A DNA stretch of 46,801 bases, from the NCBI GenBank assembly GCA_024404875.1, contig JAKSPK010000015.1, positions 1 to 46,801 on the forward strand, read 5' to 3'. The translations under genes and the position numbers were made by a program. A model generated the notes under the pieces. It did not search any database. It saw nothing but the letters and a program-made list of their open reading frames with translations, and had not been told where the DNA came from. Below, piece by piece: positions 26,012-33,678 of the stretch (position 1 is its first letter; the number at the start of each line of letters is the position of its first letter). The DNA is from Oscillospiraceae bacterium (lineage in GTDB: Bacteria; Bacillota; Clostridia; Oscillospirales; Ruminococcaceae).

Positions 26012-28042
26012 ATGAAAGAAGTATTACGCCAGATATCTGAATTCCTGCGGTCGAGCTTTCTCGTTTTGCTTGTGCTTGCTGCGGCAGGACTGGGCATATA
26101 TCGTCTTGCGAAGCTGCAAATCGTTGCTGCGGAAGAGGAAAAGCAGCAGGCGCGCATCTCGGAGCAGGTTTATACACAGGTGATTCCTGCGACACGCGGC
26201 GAGATCGTGGACTGCAACGGCGAGCCGATTGTGTCGAACAAGATCGGTTACAGCCTGATTCTCGAAAAAGCGTATTTCCCGGAGGATCATGCAGAGGGCA
26301 ATGCAGTCATCATGGGCTGCGTCAATCTGCTGAAGGAGGCGGGCTACGATTGGAATGATACCATGCCGATCACTGACCGTTTCCCGTATATTTTCGTCAA
26401 TGACCGCAAGAACGACATTGCCGAGATGAAAAAAAATCTGCGGCTGAATCAGTATGCGACTGCGGAGAACTGTTTCGACAAGATCCGTTCGGATTATGAG
26501 ATCGGAGATGAATACTCTGAGGAGGAACAGCGTATTCTCGCCGGCATCAGATATGAGATGCTCCTGCGCGGCTTTTCCATGTCCAATGTGTTCTATTTCT
26601 CGGATGATATCGACCTGCGGACGGTCACGCGCATTAAAGAGCTGCGCGTCAAGCTTCCGGGTATCAATGTTACCGAGAACGCGATCCGTACCGTCGAAAA
26701 CGGCAAGGTTATCCCGCATGAGATCGGCTATGTCGGCCCGATTTATTCGCAGGAGGAATATAACGAACTGAAAGCGAACGGCCACGATGACTATACACTC
26801 TCCGATCAGGTCGGCAAGACTGGTCTGGAAAGTGCCTGTGAAGCGGATCTCCGCGGATTCAATGGCAGGAAGGAGATCACCGTGACGAACGGCGAGGTCA
26901 GCTCAACCGTCATCACGCAGGAGCCGGTCGGCGGCAAGACGATTCAGATCACGGTTAATTCCAAGATGCAGATGCAGCTGCAGGATCATCTGGAGAATTA
27001 CTGCAAGCTGCTGCGTGAGACCGATGCGCAGTGCCGCGACCTGAACGCCGGCGCGATTGTTGTGCTGGATACCAAGGATAATGCCGTTCTGAGCATGGCG
27101 ACCAGTCCGACTTATGATTTGTCGGATCTGCTGGAGGATTACAAAGCCGTTTCAGAGCAGGACAATTATCCGCTTATCAACCGTGCAACAGACGGTCTTT
27201 ACCGTCCCGGCTCGACCTTTAAGACCGTGACGGCGACAGCCGGTTTGGATTCCGGCATTATCAACGCCAATTCGGACTTTTTCTGCGGCACGAATTTCAC
27301 ATATATCGACCACACATTTCACTGCACCGGCTATCATGAGAATATCAATGTCACTGGTGCGATCGCGGTCTCCTGCAATATTTTCTTCTATGAGCTTGGC
27401 ATCCGGCTTGGACTTGACCGCCTGATGGACTATGAGCGGCTATATGGTCTGGGCAGCCCGCTCGGACTGGAATCCGGCGACAGCGGCGGTTATCTCGCCT
27501 GTCCGGAGACCTTTGAGCGGCTTGGCATTCAGTGGTATGTCGGTGAGCTGACGCAGGCTGCGATTGGTCAGTCTGAGGTGCAGGTCACGCCGCTGCAAAT
27601 GGCGACGGTTGCGTCAACAATCGCGAATAACGGTCAGCGCTGGAAGCCGCATCTGATCCATTCCTACTGGAATAATATCATGACCGAGCAGCTTTCGGTC
27701 AAGGCACCGGAGCTGTCTGCACAGGTCGCGCAGAACAATGCGGACGAGGTTTATCCCTATATTACAGCAGGTATGGTGGATGCAGCCTCTGTGCCGATGA
27801 TGCCGGAATATGACTTGAGCAGCCTGCCCTTTGATGTCGCGATCAAGACCGGTACGCCGCAGTCGCCGCGCGGTACAGACTCTTTCGTTATCGGCTTTGC
27901 GCCGGCAGATATGCCGGAGATCGCATTTTGCGCGATGCTGGAGGGCGGCAAAAATGCCAAGTGTATGGTCAGGGGCATTCTGGAAAGCTATGCGGCAAAT
28001 TATCCGCGCTCTCAGATCGGCCGCGGTCTGAAGAAAAAGTGA
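26012..28042 (+). CDS. Class B penicillin-binding protein (PBP2-like transpeptidase)
   Basis: 676 residues. A short cytoplasmic tail and one membrane helix (about 14-35) are followed by the PBP dimerisation domain (from TRGEIVDCNGEPIVSN, about 60-310) and the transpeptidase domain. Catalytic motifs are SxxK = STFK (RPGSTFKTV), SxN = SCN (AVSCNIFFYELG) and KTG = KTGTPQ. It cross-links peptidoglycan outside the membrane and, judged by the family, works with a SEDS glycosyltransferase such as RodA; none is in the window. The dimerisation domain has an insertion-rich region (about 110-230), as in Gram-positive PBP2/elongation proteins. It follows hisS by 75 bp, where a small CGGAG/CTCCG hairpin precedes the ribosome binding site. 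Confidence 0.94.
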   Translation: MKEVLRQISEFLRSSFLVLLVLAAAGLGIYRLAKLQIVAAEEEKQQARISEQVYTQVIPATRGEIVDCNGEPIVSNKIGYSLILEKAYFPEDHAEGNAVIMGCVNLLKEAGYDWNDTMPITDRFPYIFVNDRKNDIAEMKKNLRLNQYATAENCFDKIRSDYEIGDEYSEEEQRILAGIRYEMLLRGFSMSNVFYFSDDIDLRTVTRIKELRVKLPGINVTENAIRTVENGKVIPHEIGYVGPIYSQEEYNELKANGHDDYTLSDQVGKTGLESACEADLRGFNGRKEITVTNGEVSSTVITQEPVGGKTIQITVNSKMQMQLQDHLENYCKLLRETDAQCRDLNAGAIVVLDTKDNAVLSMATSPTYDLSDLLEDYKAVSEQDNYPLINRATDGLYRPGSTFKTVTATAGLDSGIINANSDFFCGTNFTYIDHTFHCTGYHENINVTGAIAVSCNIFFYELGIRLGLDRLMDYERLYGLGSPLGLESGDSGGYLACPETFERLGIQWYVGELTQAAIGQSEVQVTPLQMATVASTIANNGQRWKPHLIHSYWNNIMTEQLSVKAPELSAQVAQNNADEVYPYITAGMVDAASVPMMPEYDLSSLPFDVAIKTGTPQSPRGTDSFVIGFAPADMPEIAFCAMLEGGKNAKCMVRGILESYAANYPRSQIGRGLKKK

Positions 28043-28072
28043 TACGGCGCGGAAAATTGGGAGCGAATGCAG

Positions 28073-28414
28073 ATGAATATTCAGGTTTTCGGAAAATCTA
28101 AATGCTTTGATACTAAAAAAGCTGAGCGCTTTTTCAAGGAACGCGGGGTGAAGTTTCAGCGGATTGATTTGCCGGATAAAGGCATGAGCCGCCGCGAGCT
28201 GGAAAGCGTAATCCGGGCAGTCGGCGGCATGGAACCGCTGGTCGATCCGAAGGATCAGGACTATGCGCTCTGGCAGCATCTTCTGCCGGATGCGCAGTTC
28301 GATATGCTGCTGGAAACGCCGGAGATGCTGCGCACACCGATTGTCCGCAACGGACAAAAGGCAACAGTCGGTGCAGCGGAAGCAGTCTGGAAACAGTGGA
28401 TCGCTGAGGGTTGA
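28073..28414 (+). CDS. ArsC/Spx/YffB-like thioredoxin-fold protein
   Basis: 113 residues, cytosolic. ATG 28073 fits the GGGAG site better than ATG 28067. The N-terminus NIQVFGKSKCFDTKKAERFF carries the single redox Cys (Cys11) at the ArsC-family position, but followed by FDT rather than a second Cys. The cis-Pro loop region is LRTPIVRNG. The family includes glutaredoxin-type arsenate reductases, Spx regulators and proteins of unknown role; without the extra Cys or neighbouring ars genes an arsenate function is not supported. It starts 30 bp after the penicillin-binding protein gene and is probably cotranscribed with it. Confidence 0.87.
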   Translation: MNIQVFGKSKCFDTKKAERFFKERGVKFQRIDLPDKGMSRRELESVIRAVGGMEPLVDPKDQDYALWQHLLPDAQFDMLLETPEMLRTPIVRNGQKATVGAAEAVWKQWIAEG

Positions 28415-28519
28415 GATAGATATCTCGCGAAGCTGACGAAGCTGCTGGCTGCAATGGAATGGTGCGATGTGAAATGGCTGACGCCGGAGAAGAATGTGAC
28501 ATTATTTTGATTGAATCCA

Positions 28520-28548
28520 TTGCACTTTTTGCGATAATATGGTATAAT
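28520..28548 (+). promoter_or_regulatory. Promoter of the barnase-barstar operon
   Basis: -35 TTGCAC (28520-28525), 17 bp spacer ending TATGG, perfect -10 TATAAT (28543-28548). It lies about 42 bp before the lipoprotein start. Confidence 0.85.
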
Positions 28549-28590
28549 GGAATCATCGGCCGTGAGCTGAATCGAAAGGAAGGCAGAAGC

Positions 28591-29226
28591 ATGAAACGAC
28601 TATTGGCAATATTGGCAGCGGGATTGCTCCTGCCGGTTGCCGGCTGCGGAAAAAAGCCGACGGAGCCGCAGAACAGTGAACCCGAATATAACCTCGTTAT
28701 TGAGGATACGACGAAGCCTGCGGAGACTGCGCAGATGCAGACCGTCACCGAGGTTGTTACGGATACGCAGGTTGGTACAGTCACGAGTGTCGTTGATGCT
28801 CCGCAGGAGGAAGATAGTAGTTCGGTCTATGAAGCAAGCGAACTGACAGAGACTGAGCCACTTGTCGTCGATGTGAAGATCGACAAGGACGGCACCTATA
28901 CCACAAAGGACGATGTCGCGCTTTATATTTACACCTACGGCGAGCTGCCGCACAACTTTATCTCGAAGAAGAAAGCGCAGAAGCTTGGCTGGGAGGGCGG
29001 CTCGCTGGAACCCTATGCGCCCGGCTGCTGCATCGGCGGAAGCTTTTTCGGAAATTATGAAGGCGCTTTGCCTGAAAAGGAAGGACGCGAATATACCGAA
29101 TGCGATATCGACACACTCGGCAAGCAATCGCGCGGTGCGAAGCGCATTGTCTTTTCGAATGACGGACTTATCTATTATACCGGAGATCACTACAAGACCT
29201 TTGAATTATTGTATGGGGAGGAATAG
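28591..29226 (+). CDS. Lipoprotein with C-terminal barnase-type ribonuclease domain
   Basis: 211 residues from ATG 28591 (GAAAGGAAGG upstream). A lipoprotein signal peptide ends in the lipobox VAGC (Cys19), so the protein is exported and lipid-anchored. A Thr/Glu/Val-rich low-complexity linker (about 20-90) precedes a barnase/guanyl-specific ribonuclease domain (about 92-211). The match to Bacillus barnase is direct: LPHNFISKKKAQKLGW, CIGGSFFGNYEGALPEKEGR, and DHYKTF. All catalytic residues are kept: Lys126 (barnase Lys27), Glu170 (Glu73), Arg181 and Arg185 (Arg83, Arg87) and His200 (His102). It should cleave RNA after guanosine. A barstar gene follows 2 bp after the stop. The anchored form is unlike the freely secreted barnase. 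Confidence 0.93.
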   Translation: MKRLLAILAAGLLLPVAGCGKKPTEPQNSEPEYNLVIEDTTKPAETAQMQTVTEVVTDTQVGTVTSVVDAPQEEDSSSVYEASELTETEPLVVDVKIDKDGTYTTKDDVALYIYTYGELPHNFISKKKAQKLGWEGGSLEPYAPGCCIGGSFFGNYEGALPEKEGREYTECDIDTLGKQSRGAKRIVFSNDGLIYYTGDHYKTFELLYGEE

Positions 29227-29228
29227 CT

Positions 29229-29498
29229 ATGAATGTGACGATCGACTGCGCACAGATCCGCACGAAGTCGGATTTCCACACAAAATTTTCACAGATGCTG
29301 AAGCTGCCGGGCTTTTACGGCGAAAATCTCGACGCGCTGCATGACTGTTTGACTGATCTGCCGCAGAGATCTGTCATCACGCTGCTCCATACGCAATGCC
29401 TGATCGACAATCTCGGCCCCTATGGGCGCGCTGCAATCTCCGCAATGGCACACGCCGAGCGTGAGAATGCCGGCTGGCTGACGATCAATATGCTGTGA
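29229..29498 (+). CDS. Barstar family ribonuclease inhibitor
   Basis: 89 residues, the same length as Bacillus barstar. The protein is cytosolic (no signal peptide). The helix that plugs the ribonuclease active site is conserved as FYGENLDALHDCL, with Asp35 and Asp39 at identical numbering. Barstar Tyr29 and Trp38 are Phe and His here. Acidic residues near 77-79 lie where barstar has Glu76. Its ribosome binding site (GGGGAGGAA) overlaps the end of the ribonuclease gene, 2 bp apart, which suggests translational coupling so that inhibitor is made with toxin. It protects the producing cell before the ribonuclease is exported. Confidence 0.92.
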   Translation: MNVTIDCAQIRTKSDFHTKFSQMLKLPGFYGENLDALHDCLTDLPQRSVITLLHTQCLIDNLGPYGRAAISAMAHAERENAGWLTINML

Positions 29499-29501
29499 AA
29501 C

Positions 29502-29530
29502 AGACGCACCTCGCTTTGAGGTGCGTCTTT
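29502..29530 (+). terminator. Intrinsic terminator of the barnase-barstar operon
   Basis: An 11 bp perfect stem AGACGCACCTC (29502-29512) with its complement (29518-29528), loop GCTTT, then a short T-run. It is placed just after the barstar stop. Confidence 0.85.
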
Positions 29531-29664
29531 ACATTTCAAAATCCGTTTGCATCTGCTTGGCCGGGAAAGAATAGGACTGCAAAAAATGCCGGTGCGTATC
29601 CGGAAAGAAACCCGTCGGAAGGTTGCCGGATTTCTGGACAAACTGCCTGAAAAATGCAGATTTC

Positions 29665-29693
29665 TTGACTTTCCCTGAAAACTGTGATATAAT
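29665..29693 (+). promoter_or_regulatory. Promoter of the CDF-MBOAT-SGNH operon
   Basis: -35 TTGACT (29665-29670), 17 bp spacer, perfect -10 TATAAT (29688-29693). It lies about 52 bp before the start at 29745. Confidence 0.85.
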
Positions 29694-29744
29694 AATTAGG
29701 CCTGTATTTCCCGTATAGCCCTACAAATGCAACAGGAGGACGAC

Positions 29745-30860
29745 ATGAAACAGGTTCGCAGCCGTTCCGGAGAGATAACCAGAGTCAGCCGATACGGCAT
29801 TGCTGTGAATATTGTACTGGTGCTGTTCAAAGCGGCAGTCGGTCTTGCTGCGCATTCGATTGCTGTCGTGTTGGACGCCGTTAATAACTTGACAGATGCT
29901 GTATCATCACTGATTACAATCATTGGCACAAAGCTCGCAGGCAAGGCTGCTGACCGAAAGCATCCTTACGGCCACGGGCGGATTGAATATATTGCGGCCA
30001 CCTTAGTCGCACTTATGATCCTCGCAGCGGGATTGACATCGCTGAAAGAATCCATAAACAAGCTCCTTCATCCGGAGGCGCTGAATTATACTTTTGTCTC
30101 TGTGATCGTCATTCTCGGCGCGTTGGCGGCAAAGGTGCTGCTTGGTACCTATTACCGCAGAAAGGGAACCGAACTGAATTCGGATTCGCTGAAGGCTTCC
30201 GGCACAGATGCGCTGTTTGATGCCGTGATCTCACTGGCAACGCTGATCTCCGCTGTTGTCAGCATGACATTCGGATTGAATCTGGAGGGCGTGCTCGGCA
30301 TTGTGATCTCGCTCCTGATCCTGAAAGCAGGACTGGAGATTATCACTGGAACGATCAGCCGTATTATCGGCACCCGGACGGATGATGCGCTGACGGCAAA
30401 GATTCGGGAAGTGATATGTGCTGATCCGAATGTTCGCGGCGTCTACGACTTGATCCTGCATAACTACGGGCCGGAGACATATTTTGGTTCTGTGCATATT
30501 GAAGTGGATGACAATATGTCTGCACGGGAGATTGACGCGCTTTCGCGAAGCCTTGCCGGAGAAATCTATCGGTCGTTTAGCGTGCTGATGACATTCGGCA
30601 TTTACGCAGCGAATACGCATAATGAAACGGCAGTTGAAATCCGCAGTGCTGTGAATGAGATCACCGGCCGTTTTCCGGCGATCCGGCAGGTTCACGGCTT
30701 TTATCTGGAGGAATTCGCGCGAATCGTTTCATTCGATATTCTGCTTGATTACGATATCAACGATCCGGATACGATCACGGATGTAATCCGGCTGGCACTG
30801 GCGGAACGCTTTCCGGATTATGATTTCTATATTAACATTGACCGCGATTTCAGCGAATAA
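29745..30860 (+). CDS. Cation diffusion facilitator, Mn-type metal exporter
   Basis: 371 residues. ATG 29745 has AGGAGG upstream; the in-frame ATG at 29727 does not. Six membrane helices (about 15-205) are followed by a cytosolic metal-binding dimerisation domain (about 210-290) and an extra C-terminal domain of ferredoxin-like character. The metal site reads NxxxD in helix 2 (Asn47-Asp51, AVNNLTDAV) and DxxxD in helix 5 (TDALFDAV), with KHPYGHGRIEYIAA after helix 2. This N/D-D/D set is typical of manganese (or iron) exporters such as MntE rather than of zinc CDFs with HxxxD. It is first in an operon with only 21 bp to the MBOAT gene. Confidence 0.9.
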   Translation: MKQVRSRSGEITRVSRYGIAVNIVLVLFKAAVGLAAHSIAVVLDAVNNLTDAVSSLITIIGTKLAGKAADRKHPYGHGRIEYIAATLVALMILAAGLTSLKESINKLLHPEALNYTFVSVIVILGALAAKVLLGTYYRRKGTELNSDSLKASGTDALFDAVISLATLISAVVSMTFGLNLEGVLGIVISLLILKAGLEIITGTISRIIGTRTDDALTAKIREVICADPNVRGVYDLILHNYGPETYFGSVHIEVDDNMSAREIDALSRSLAGEIYRSFSVLMTFGIYAANTHNETAVEIRSAVNEITGRFPAIRQVHGFYLEEFARIVSFDILLDYDINDPDTITDVIRLALAERFPDYDFYINIDRDFSE

Positions 30861-30881: not shown

Positions 30882-32432
30882 ATGGTATTCAGCAGCTTTG
30901 CATTTCTGCTATGGTTTCTGCCGTTCTGTCTGATTGCATATATGCTGATGCAGAAGCCGCAGAAGAATTTGGTTCTGCTGATTTTCAGCATCGTTTTTTA
31001 TGCATACGGTGCTGTCGAAACGCCGCTGTATCTCTGGCTGATCCTCGGCTCCGTTGTCATCAACTGGGGCTGCGGCATGATGATCGGCCGGCGCGACGGC
31101 AGGGAAAAGCTATGGCTGACGCTCGGCCTGATCTGGGATTTAGGCAATCTGTTCGTTTTCAAATATACCGATTTCTTCATTCAGAATCTTAATGCGATTG
31201 GATTCCGATTGCCGCTGACGAATCTTGTTTTGCCGCTTGGCATCAGCTTCTTCACATTCCAGATCGCATCCTATCTGATTGATGTATACCGAGGGCAGGT
31301 TGATGTGGAATACGACCTGATCGACCTTGGCACCTATATCCTGATGTTCCCGCAGCTCATCGCAGGCCCGATCGTGCGTTTTTCCGATGTGCAGAAGGAG
31401 CTGCATGAACGCCGCGTCAGGCCGGAGGAGTTTCATGAGGGCGTGCAGCTTTTCATCATCGGTCTCGGCCGCAAGGTACTGCTCGCGAATATGCTCGGCC
31501 TGCTCTGGACGGATCTGCAATCGGTCGGCTATGATGCGATCTCCGGAAAAGCCGCGTGGATGGGCATCATTGCCTACAGTATGCAGCTGTATTTTGACTT
31601 CTCCGGTTATTCGCAGATGGCAATCGGCATGGGACTGATGTTCGGCTTCCATTTTCCGAAAAACTTCGATCATCCGTATATCTCGACTACGATGACCGAA
31701 TTCTGGCGACGCTGGCATATCACACTCGGCACATGGTTCAAGGAATATGTGTATTTCCCGCTTGGCGGCAACCGCAAGGGAAAGCGGAGAATGTATCTGA
31801 ATATGTTCATTGTCTGGACGCTGACCGGCTTCTGGCACGGCGCCGACTGGAACTTCCTCCTTTGGGGAATGCTGCTGTTCTGTCTGCTCTCGATTGAGAA
31901 GGCGGGTCTTGGCAAAGCCCTCGAAAAGCGCAAATGGCTTGGCCATCTCTATATGCTCTTCTGGATCCCGATGTCGTGGCTGCTGTTCGCGATCACTGAT
32001 ATGAAGCAGCTTGGGATGTATTTTTCAAAGCTCTGGGGCTTCGGCGGACCAGCGCTCATGGCAAAGGATTATGTGAAATACTGGGGCACTTACGGCAAAT
32101 GGCTCATCATCGGTCTGATCTTCTGCACTGCATTTCCAGAGAAGCTTTTCAAGGCAATGAAGGAACGGCAGAAGTATCCGGCAAGCCGTTATTTCTGGAT
32201 CGTCGAAACCGCAGGTATTGCGGCATATGTTATCATAGCACAGAAATGGTGGTTTGCACTGCTGCTCGTCGTGCCGTATCTGCGTGAGATGCTCTGCCGG
32301 CGCGTACCGAAGCAGAATATCAAGCGGTTTCTTCAGTTTTTCTGGGTGCCGGAGCTTGCTGTTGTACTCTTCGCATCCATGTATTGTATCTATATGGGAA
32401 TGAACAACCCGTTCCTGTATTTCCGTTTCTGA
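30882..32432 (+). CDS. MBOAT family O-acyltransferase (AlgI/DltB-like)
   Basis: 516 residues, about ten membrane segments. Conserved MBOAT regions are LPLGISFFTFQIASYLIDVYRG, MFPQLIAGPIVRF, FDFSGYSQMAIG, MTEFWRRWHITLGTWFKEYV, FPLGGNRKG and the active-site His in LTGFWHGADWNF. These enzymes move an acyl group, usually acetyl, from the cytosol across the membrane to a partner that modifies surface polysaccharides or teichoic acids. No dlt genes are near, so it is more like AlgI, acting with the SGNH protein encoded 19 bp downstream. GAGAGGGAG precedes the start. Confidence 0.94.
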   Translation: MVFSSFAFLLWFLPFCLIAYMLMQKPQKNLVLLIFSIVFYAYGAVETPLYLWLILGSVVINWGCGMMIGRRDGREKLWLTLGLIWDLGNLFVFKYTDFFIQNLNAIGFRLPLTNLVLPLGISFFTFQIASYLIDVYRGQVDVEYDLIDLGTYILMFPQLIAGPIVRFSDVQKELHERRVRPEEFHEGVQLFIIGLGRKVLLANMLGLLWTDLQSVGYDAISGKAAWMGIIAYSMQLYFDFSGYSQMAIGMGLMFGFHFPKNFDHPYISTTMTEFWRRWHITLGTWFKEYVYFPLGGNRKGKRRMYLNMFIVWTLTGFWHGADWNFLLWGMLLFCLLSIEKAGLGKALEKRKWLGHLYMLFWIPMSWLLFAITDMKQLGMYFSKLWGFGGPALMAKDYVKYWGTYGKWLIIGLIFCTAFPEKLFKAMKERQKYPASRYFWIVETAGIAAYVIIAQKWWFALLLVVPYLREMLCRRVPKQNIKRFLQFFWVPELAVVLFASMYCIYMGMNNPFLYFRF

Positions 32433-32451
32433 TTATTGAGGAGGAATCAAA

Positions 32452-33678
32452 ATGAGTGAAAAACAACCGGAACGCAATGGCCGCAGACCCGCGGACGGTG
32501 AGCGGCCGCAGAGATCAGCAAATGGCGAACGCCCGCGCAGAACAGCAGATGGCGAACGCCCTCGCAGAACAGCAGACGGCGAGCGCACGCGCAGAGCAGC
32601 AGACGGCGAGCGTCCGCGCAGACCGCGCACAGATGACGCACATCGTACACGCCGAGCTGCGGAGGTTGCAGAGCGTCCGGTGCGCCGTGCGCGTCCGGAG
32701 GGTTCGCGTGCGGTAGAACGCAGTGCAGCGCAGTCTCAGAGAAGCGATGACGCAAAAAAGAAGACGATTATTCGCTCGGCTGCGGCGGTTGCAGTGATCG
32801 TGCTGTTCCTGATCGTCGGCAAGATCTTCTTCTGGAACCAGGATAGCACAAAGAATACGCAGGGCAATGAGGTCTCTGTTGCGGAGGTCGGTGTCACAAC
32901 CACAACAGAGATCACCACGACAACCGCTGAGACCACAACCGTTACGACAACCGAGGCGACCGCGGAGGTGCATTTCGAGACCTACCCGCTGACTGCAGGC
33001 GATGCTGATGCATCGACTCAGACACAGGCTGTGACTGATGCTGATGCCGCGCAGACGGAGGCTGTTACGACCGAGGCTGCCGCAACGGGATTCCCTGTCA
33101 ATGCGCCGGAAGGCTACTTCAATGACGCATTGTTTATCGGCGATTCCAGAACGGTCGGACAGGCCTGTTTCGGCCCGATTGAAGGCGCGACCTATTTTGC
33201 TACCGTCGGTCTTGCGACCTATAAGATTGATGAGGCTGTCAGCGAGGTTCCGGGGACAGATGGCATGAGCTTTGCGGATGCGCTTGCGATGAAGCAGTTT
33301 ACAAAGGTTTACATTATGCTCGGCATCAACGAGCTGGGCAATGACCTCAATATGACGATGAACAATTTCAAAAACCTGATTGCCCGCATTCAGCAGGCAC
33401 AGCCGAATGCAGTTATCATCATCGAAGCGAATCTCCATGTTTCGGCAATACGCCACAACAGTGATGCGCTTGTCAATAATACGGTCATCAACAGTTTCAA
33501 CGCCGGCCTTGCGCAGTTTGCCGATAATAACAAGATCTATTATATTGATGTCAATCCGGTTTTCGATGATGCGAACGGCTGCCTGACAGCTGAATACACG
33601 AGCGACGGTACGCATCCCTATGCGAACCAGTACGCGAACTGGGCAGACTTCATTCGCAAGAATGCCGTTGTGAAATAA
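32452..33678 (+). CDS. Membrane-anchored SGNH hydrolase-type protein with Arg-rich repeat tail
   Basis: 408 residues, with GAGGAGG upstream of ATG 32452. The N-terminal ~100 residues are cytoplasmic, disordered and strongly basic, with five 9-residue units around DGERPRRTA and more RR-containing sequence. One membrane helix (about 104-124) follows, then a Thr-rich outer linker (TTTTEITTTTAETT) and an SGNH domain (about 220-408). The catalytic blocks are complete: LFIGDSRTVG (Ser), MLGINELGND, and DGTHPYANQY (Asp, His). With the adjacent MBOAT it probably carries out the outer transfer step of O-acetylation of a wall or capsular glycan, by analogy to AlgJ/AlgX or PatB. This is an inference. 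Confidence 0.9.
   Translation: MSEKQPERNGRRPADGERPQRSANGERPRRTADGERPRRTADGERTRRAADGERPRRPRTDDAHRTRRAAEVAERPVRRARPEGSRAVERSAAQSQRSDDAKKKTIIRSAAAVAVIVLFLIVGKIFFWNQDSTKNTQGNEVSVAEVGVTTTTEITTTTAETTTVTTTEATAEVHFETYPLTAGDADASTQTQAVTDADAAQTEAVTTEAAATGFPVNAPEGYFNDALFIGDSRTVGQACFGPIEGATYFATVGLATYKIDEAVSEVPGTDGMSFADALAMKQFTKVYIMLGINELGNDLNMTMNNFKNLIARIQQAQPNAVIIIEANLHVSAIRHNSDALVNNTVINSFNAGLAQFADNNKIYYIDVNPVFDDANGCLTAEYTSDGTHPYANQYANWADFIRKNAVVK
32494..32628 (+). repeat. 27-bp in-frame tandem repeat
   Basis: Five consecutive 27 bp units start at 32494, 32521, 32548, 32575 and 32602, each encoding a variant of (D/N)GER(P/T)(R/Q)R(T/S/A/P)A. Units 2-4 are nearly identical in DNA. It could vary in copy number between strains. 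Confidence 0.85.

What the first reader, a model, noticed from the sequence alone, without database searches (positions are those of the whole stretch)
28520..29530. Lipid-anchored barnase with a coupled barstar in a gut/rumen Firmicute
Seen: a lipoprotein signal (VAGC), a long Thr/Glu linker, and a barnase domain with all five catalytic residues kept (Lys126, Glu170, Arg181, Arg185, His200), followed 2 bp later by an 89-residue barstar with Asp35 and Asp39, all between its own promoter and terminator. Known: Bacillus barnase is freely secreted. Inferred: tethering to the outer face of the membrane could make it a contact-dependent or defensive ribonuclease, or a nutrient/extracellular-RNA processing enzyme, with barstar as pre-export immunity. 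The combination differs from the textbook pair.
Basis: partly seen in the sequence, partly recalled or inferred. Interest (0 to 1): 0.75.

Follow-up and report, generated by a model that had tools for sequence, protein, structure and literature searches.

The report
Membrane-tethered barnase with its barstar inhibitor
A gut/rumen bacterium carries a classic RNA-cutting enzyme that is probably fixed to the outside of its membrane by a fatty anchor and a long flexible stalk, next to the gene for its inhibitor; this tethered form turns out to be the usual one in its bacterial order, unlike the freely released textbook enzyme of Bacillus.

Summary
Observation confirmed. Window 28591-29226 encodes a 211-aa lipoprotein (VAGC, Cys19) with an ~85-residue Thr/Glu linker and a barnase domain (Pfam 1.8e-19) keeping Lys126, Glu170, Arg181, Arg185, His200; barstar (89 aa) starts 2 bp later. 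It differs from Bacillus, not from its own order: of 182 loci classed, 148 are surface-type (121 lipobox-like, 21 transmembrane-like by rule, 3 dockerin, 1 signal plus repeats, 2 unreadable); no bare secreted form was recognised. In the genus 26 of 30 genomes carry it, all 26 with adjacent barstar; 22 have a lipobox, 4 a longer hydrophobic segment, so the anchor varies while tethering seems kept. The domain is under strong purifying selection (dN/dS 0.01-0.07), without delivery domain or immunity array in this genome: a resident surface RNase rather than a polymorphic toxin. In another genus (5 species, one lineage) the active site is lost and no barstar is found in the genomes, as expected if barstar serves against catalysis. 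Most likely role: surface RNA digestion for nutrients, barstar as pre-export protection (inferred). New variant of a known kind.

The parts
28520..28548 (+). promoter: weak -35 TTGCAC (28520-28525), 17-nt spacer, extended -10 TGGTATAAT ending 28548
   Evidence: read; a -10 with TG within 110 bp upstream in 21 of 26 genus loci
28574..28583 (+). ribosome-binding site GAAAGGAAGG for the lipoprotein gene
28591..29226 (+). lipoprotein barnase gene, 211 aa
   Evidence: PF00545 E 1.8e-19; 26 of 30 genus genomes carry a barnase
28591..28647 (+). type II signal peptide and lipobox VAGC (Cys19)
   Evidence: sequence; lipobox in 22 of 26 genus orthologues; Lsp and Lgt present
28648..28902 (+). Thr/Glu/Ala-rich linker, about 85 residues
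   Evidence: genus linkers 28% identical on average, 24% Thr, 13% Glu; dN/dS 0.14-0.51
28903..29223 (+). barnase catalytic domain; K126, E170, R181, R185, H200
   Evidence: dN/dS 0.01-0.07
29215..29221 (+). ribosome-binding site GGGGAGG of barstar, inside the end of the barnase gene
29229..29498 (+). barstar, 89 aa, D35 and D39, no signal sequence
   Evidence: PF01337 E 1.9e-19; PDB barstar by profile 4.1e-18
29502..29528 (+). terminator-like hairpin, 12 pairs, weak T tract
   Evidence: no more such hits than in shuffles

Best explanation
A two-gene unit with its own promoter makes a guanyl-type RNase that is exported, lipidated at Cys19 and held on the outer face of the membrane, with a flexible ~85-residue stalk that lets the catalytic domain sit in or beyond the wall. 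Barstar, translated from the same message and not exported, blocks any copy that folds before or instead of export. At the surface the enzyme cuts RNA from lysed plant, protozoal and bacterial cells next to the cell, so that products are used by the producer rather than shared. Shown by sequence: anatomy, intact active site, conservation, coupling, purifying selection, anchor-like N-termini across the order. Inferred: lipidation, RNase activity, barstar binding, nutrient role.
For: Catalytic K27/E73/R83/R87/H102 (barnase numbering) in 26 of 26 genus orthologues and 142 of 148 surface-type loci. Barstar adjacent in 124 of 148; D35 in 124 of 124 and D39 in 123 of 124 of them. Of 148 surface-type loci 121 lipobox-like, 21 TM-like, 3 dockerin; of the 80 nearest loci kept from genome contigs, which overlap the first set, 70 lipobox, 65 of these with barstar. 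Anchor state (lipid or TM) changes at least 11 times on a quick domain tree, 3 times in the genus. Natural control: the 5 catalytically broken lipoprotein barnases (genus g31) lack barstar in the whole genome, 0 of 5, although still conserved (dN/dS 0.03-0.21). dN/dS of domain 0.01-0.07 and barstar 0-0.17: no arms race. None of seven window neighbours found near the unit in 12 of 20 genus loci. A Bacillus relative, balifase, is induced by phosphate starvation, as is binase (PMC5021464, passages).
Against: No functional data. No 5'-nucleotidase (PF02872) match in the incomplete genome, and the one Bmp-family match (nucleoside-binding lipoprotein family) is partial, 3-168 of 301, in a 672-aa frame, so a downstream nutrient pathway is unproven. 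24 of 148 surface-type loci have no adjacent barstar; after the 5 dead ones 19 intact ones remain: 13 genomes have a barstar elsewhere (5 of those 13 have it beside a second barnase) and 6 show none (one locus cut at a contig edge, one genome 70% complete), so barstar is not strictly needed. The lipobox is lost in 4 of 26 genus members; there an AXA-like cleavage, hence release, cannot be excluded. In the family the gene is patchy (87 of 396 genomes, 62 of 283 better ones), so it is not essential.
Confidence: 0.6

Rival explanations
1. Contact-dependent or short-range antibacterial toxin: the tethered barnase enters neighbouring cells and barstar is immunity against siblings.
For: Toxin-then-immunity gene order; barnase is used in polymorphic toxins (PMC3482391, passages); lipobox-anchored effectors are described in Amoebophilus (same paper).
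Against: No delivery or translocation domain in Pfam; domain 86% identical on average in the genus with dN/dS 0.01-0.07; one barnase and one barstar in the 87%-complete genome, whereas phage-type barnases in L135 and L138 have five barstar matches downstream; common in the genus (26 of 30).
Confidence: 0.15
2. Barrier enzyme: the surface RNase protects against incoming RNA (RNA phage, vesicle RNA) or trims surface-bound RNA in biofilm, not nutrition.
For: Position at the outer face; broad conservation.
Against: Neither protein matches a PADLOC defence family; the nearest neighbours are ArsC-like, PBP2, HisS, cation efflux, MBOAT, GDSL and PARG-type genes; RNA phages of these hosts are not established (recalled).
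Confidence: 0.1
3. Released RNase: the anchor is transient and the enzyme is shed, so it works as free Bacillus barnase.
For: The linker is long and fast-evolving and could be cut by proteases; 4 of 26 genus members lack the lipid Cys and could be cleaved.
Against: In two genomes of one family (G842, G1148) a lipobox barnase and a secreted-type barnase coexist, which suggests distinct roles; 145 of 146 readable order-level surface-type loci have an anchor-like element.
Confidence: 0.1
4. Cytoplasmic toxin-antitoxin module with a chance signal-like N-terminus.
For: Barnase and barstar act as toxin and antidote when co-expressed in cells (PMC12322067 and PMC8625414, abstracts in the listing).
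Against: An export signal or membrane segment in all 146 readable surface-type loci of the order; linker retained.
Confidence: 0.02

Closest known systems
Bacillus amyloliquefaciens barnase and barstar (N1/T1 guanyl RNase, PF00545; PF01337)
   Same: Domain family by sequence (E 1.7e-24), all five catalytic positions, barstar Asp35/Asp39.
   Different: Barnase is released as a free 110-residue protein (PMC8625414, passages). Here: lipobox, long linker, inhibitor 2 bp downstream; position 59 is Tyr instead of Arg and barstar position 76 is His instead of Glu, i.e. residues named in the known interface (PMC8837141, passages) are lost on both sides.
Bacillus licheniformis balifase operon (RNase plus barstar orthologue)
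   Same: RNase and inhibitor in one operon; reported as unique there (PMC5021464, passages). PMC8837141 states that barstar is absent from that species (passages); the two papers disagree.
   Different: Balifase is secreted freely.
Simple barnase-barstar gene pairs of Zhang et al. 2012
   Same: They call such pairs widely distributed and a possible incipient toxin-immunity order (PMC3482391, passages).
   Different: No lipid-tethered or dockerin barnase is described in the passages seen (12 of 14 places).
MuF polymorphic toxins with barnase C-terminus
   Same: Barnase plus barstar; one in the same genus (L028, PF04233 2.2e-9). The MuF toxin family is described in PMC5576092 (passages; the word barnase does not occur in its main text).
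   Different: Phage head-type N-terminus, no signal, in two loci five barstar matches; domain match weaker (L028 38.8 bits against 72 for the window).

Membership tests
Barnase/N1-T1 guanyl RNase (PF00545) | domain match over curated cut-off | tested here: met
   70.5 bits against 24
Barnase/N1-T1 guanyl RNase (PF00545) | catalytic Lys27, Glu73, Arg83, Arg87, His102 (roles recalled) | tested here: met
   all present; 26 of 26 in genus
Barnase/N1-T1 guanyl RNase (PF00545) | guanosine-specific RNA cleavage | not testable with these tools
   needs the purified domain
Barstar (PF01337) | domain match, Asp35 and Asp39, no signal sequence | tested here: met
   69.9 bits against 23.4; residues
Barstar (PF01337) | Glu76 facing barnase Arg59 (a feature of the Bacillus complex, not of the family as a whole) | tested here: not met
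   His76/Tyr59 here; acidic 76 lost in 25 of 26 and Arg59 in 26 of 26 genus pairs
Bacterial lipoprotein | n-region Lys/Arg, h-region, [LVI][ASTVI][GAS]C (motif recalled) | tested here: met
   MKRLLAILAAGLLLPVAGC
Bacterial lipoprotein | Lgt and Lsp in the host | tested here: met
   one match each
Bacterial lipoprotein | lipidated in vivo | not testable with these tools
   labelling needed
Polymorphic toxin system | dedicated trafficking domain with variable C-terminal toxins | tested here: not met
   only anchor plus linker; C-terminal domain constant, 86% mean identity in genus
Polymorphic toxin system | orphan cassettes or immunity arrays | tested here: not met
   one barnase and one barstar in the genome, 87% complete
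Type II toxin-antitoxin | both proteins cytoplasmic | tested here: not met
   signal and lipobox; export itself is inferred

The most novel reading that the evidence does not exclude
Cell-surface tethering is the selected trait: across Clostridia, barnase is a private surface RNase held by interchangeable anchors (lipid, transmembrane segment, cellulosomal dockerin), and in one genus it became a conserved catalytically dead surface protein, perhaps an RNA receptor, that shed its barstar.
Probability: 0.4. Interest if true: 0.6.

Novelty: new variant of a known kind. Interest (0 to 1): 0.42.

Why it matters
Barnase-barstar is a leading model of protein folding and tight binding, yet its natural role is poorly known (recalled). 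If the usual natural form in gut and rumen Clostridia is a cell-held RNase, that argues for private use of extracellular RNA and offers testable hosts, a natural set of 124 adjacent enzyme-inhibitor pairs in which a known contact (59/76) varies, and a dead-enzyme lineage without inhibitor as a control. It would also be a route by which gut Firmicutes handle dietary and microbial RNA.

Tried and rejected
Contact toxin: rejected as the leading reading (no delivery domain, strong purifying selection, no immunity array in this genome). Functional linkage through neighbours: none seen; 8 of 20 genus loci keep at least one of the seven window neighbours tested (ArsC-like, PBP2 or HisS; one also cation efflux and MBOAT), 12 of 20 keep none; several of these stretches are cut by contig ends. 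Rfam over 27900-29800: nothing. PADLOC: nothing. Phage records: no match to the lipoprotein. Plasmid records: 13 with partial matches, none covering 80%. Literature for a lipid-anchored barnase: the searches show none in their listings; only passages of five papers were seen, so absence from print is not proven. Structure prediction was not obtained. The Arg59/acidic-76 association (26 of 28 against 48 of 96) is not corrected for relatedness; outside the genus it weakens (26 of 28 against 47 of 70, p 0.009). Transmembrane against cleaved signal was judged by rule and eye, not by a trained predictor. The crude gene finder misplaces genes; tblastn replaced it. Dropped rows: nine weak places (38.4 bits or less) were not fetched; L002 was dropped as a duplicate of L001; L125 and L136 were left out of the surface set (a large toxin-like protein and a locus open at its contig edge). 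L032 and L167 (Pro at -2) were counted as lipobox by eye.

Full report
What is there. The window lies in an unnamed 2.37-Mb, 114-contig draft genome, 86.9% complete. Gene 28591-29226 encodes a 211-aa protein with a lipoprotein signal (Cys19), an ~85-residue Thr/Glu-rich linker and a C-terminal barnase domain; barstar follows after 2 bp. The genome shows one barnase and one barstar, and one match each for the Lsp and Lgt enzymes that make lipoproteins.

Genus. 26 of 30 genomes carry a barnase (12 of 13 of the better ones); one of them also has a phage-type second copy, L028. All 26 orthologues have barstar directly downstream. 22 have a lipobox; L004, L008, L017 and L018 have a hydrophobic segment without the Cys. 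L024 has nearly the same N-terminus as L017/L018 but still ends in AGGC, so the change looks like loss of the lipid Cys with lengthening of the hydrophobic run (20-23 apolar residues in the four against a mean of 17.4 in the 22; two of the 22, L012 and L024, also reach 21-22). Cleavage there cannot be excluded. On a quick domain tree the anchor changed at least 3 times in the genus and 11 times overall (about 105 columns, support not inspected).

Order. Barnase was found in 87 of 396 family genomes and 80 of 394 order genomes (the samples overlap). 182 loci were classed by rule: 119 lipobox, 25 hydrophobic without lipobox, 3 dockerin, 19 MuF-like, 3 contig-edge, 13 other. After reading by eye the surface-type set is 148: 121 lipobox-like, 21 TM-like, 3 dockerin, 1 signal peptide plus repeats (L113), 2 unreadable. 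No bare secreted barnase was recognised in it. Dockerin is found by Pfam in all three (E 1.5e-7 to 2e-5); those genomes (G541, G491, G710) also have a TM-type barnase with barstar and one cohesin match each, over the cut-off in one of three, so a cellulosomal partner is only weakly supported. This set overlaps the first one and leans to near relatives.

Phylum. 19 of 398 genomes match. Of 21 new loci examined, 19 gave a barnase: by eye 7 lipobox, 5 TM-like, 5 secreted-type, 1 fused behind a hydrolase-like region, 1 large toxin-like protein. The secreted type occurs in two families (f54, f110). Two f54 genomes (G842, G1148) hold both a lipobox and a secreted-type barnase.

Catalysis and inhibitor. 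Of 148 surface-type loci 142 keep all five catalytic positions; 123 of these 142 have adjacent barstar. L062 has Thr at 27 and keeps barstar. Five loci of genus g31 (L120, L124, L126, L127, L132) have Thr/Ser27, Gln73, Arg/Gln102 and Ala60, and none of the five genomes has a barstar match. Their domain is still under purifying selection (dN/dS 0.03-0.21 in the 8 of 10 pairs where it could be computed). This is one genus, so probably one event. Of the 19 intact loci without adjacent barstar, 13 genomes have one elsewhere and 6 show none.

Interface. Asp35 is kept in 124 of 124 and Asp39 in 123 of 124 adjacent barstars. Where barnase has Arg59, barstar position 76 is acidic in 26 of 28; otherwise in 48 of 96; in the genus both are lost (26 of 26 and 25 of 26) (not corrected for relatedness). 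The pair seems to have been rewired at a known contact (residues named in PMC8837141, passages).

Selection. Over nine genus pairs, dN/dS was 0.01-0.07 for the domain, 0-0.17 for barstar and 0.14-0.51 for the linker. Mean identity in the genus: domain 86%, barstar 60%, linker 28%. The unit is not tied to neighbours and an extended -10 lies upstream in 21 of 26 loci.

Mechanism. Export, lipidation and a stalk (85 residues could reach about 30 nm fully stretched; estimate) place the enzyme outside; barstar protects the cytoplasm. The nutrient reading rests on the conserved enzyme, the lack of toxin hallmarks and phosphate-starvation induction of Bacillus relatives (PMC5021464, passages). It is inference. 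The missing 5'-nucleotidase match and the only partial Bmp match give it no pathway support, though the genome is incomplete.

Novelty. Each part is known, and simple pairs were called widely distributed in 2012 (PMC3482391, passages); a public record already labels one relative 'ribonuclease domain-containing protein'. What seems undescribed, within the searches named, is that tethering is the rule in this order, by several anchors, and that a lineage with a lost active site has no inhibitor.

Noticed in passing
L120, L124, L126, L127, L132 (genus g31): Lipid-anchored barnase with Lys27, Glu60, Glu73 and His102 all replaced, still under purifying selection, and no barstar match in any of the five genomes: a conserved surface pseudo-RNase, perhaps an RNA-binding protein.
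   Followed up: partly
L160, L163, L169: Proteins with a signal-like N-terminus, a dockerin domain and a barnase domain, without adjacent barstar, in genomes that also carry a transmembrane-anchored barnase with barstar.
   Followed up: partly
L028 and 18 further loci classed MuF-like by motif, e.g. L135, L138: Phage Mu F-like head protein fused to barnase (Pfam-tested for L028 only) with barstar downstream; L135 and L138 carry five barstar matches in a row.
   Followed up: no
L310: Barnase domain behind a region that looks like an alpha/beta-hydrolase (by eye, not searched) in one open frame, barstar 20 bp downstream.
   Followed up: no
window genome G000, contigs C20, C49, C53, C60, C82: Twelve cohesin matches, several in one long open frame: the host probably builds a cellulosome.
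   Followed up: no
window 30882-33678: MBOAT O-acyltransferase (nearest NCBIfam DltB, below its cut-off) followed by a GDSL hydrolase with a hydrophobic segment and a low-complexity Arg/Asp-rich N-terminus: perhaps a surface-polymer acylation pair.
   Followed up: no
L090, L092, L109 (genus g43): Lipoprotein barnase followed, instead of barstar, by an open frame that looked to me like an aminoglycoside adenylyltransferase (recalled resemblance, not searched); two of the three genomes have a barstar elsewhere, the third is 70% complete.
   Followed up: no
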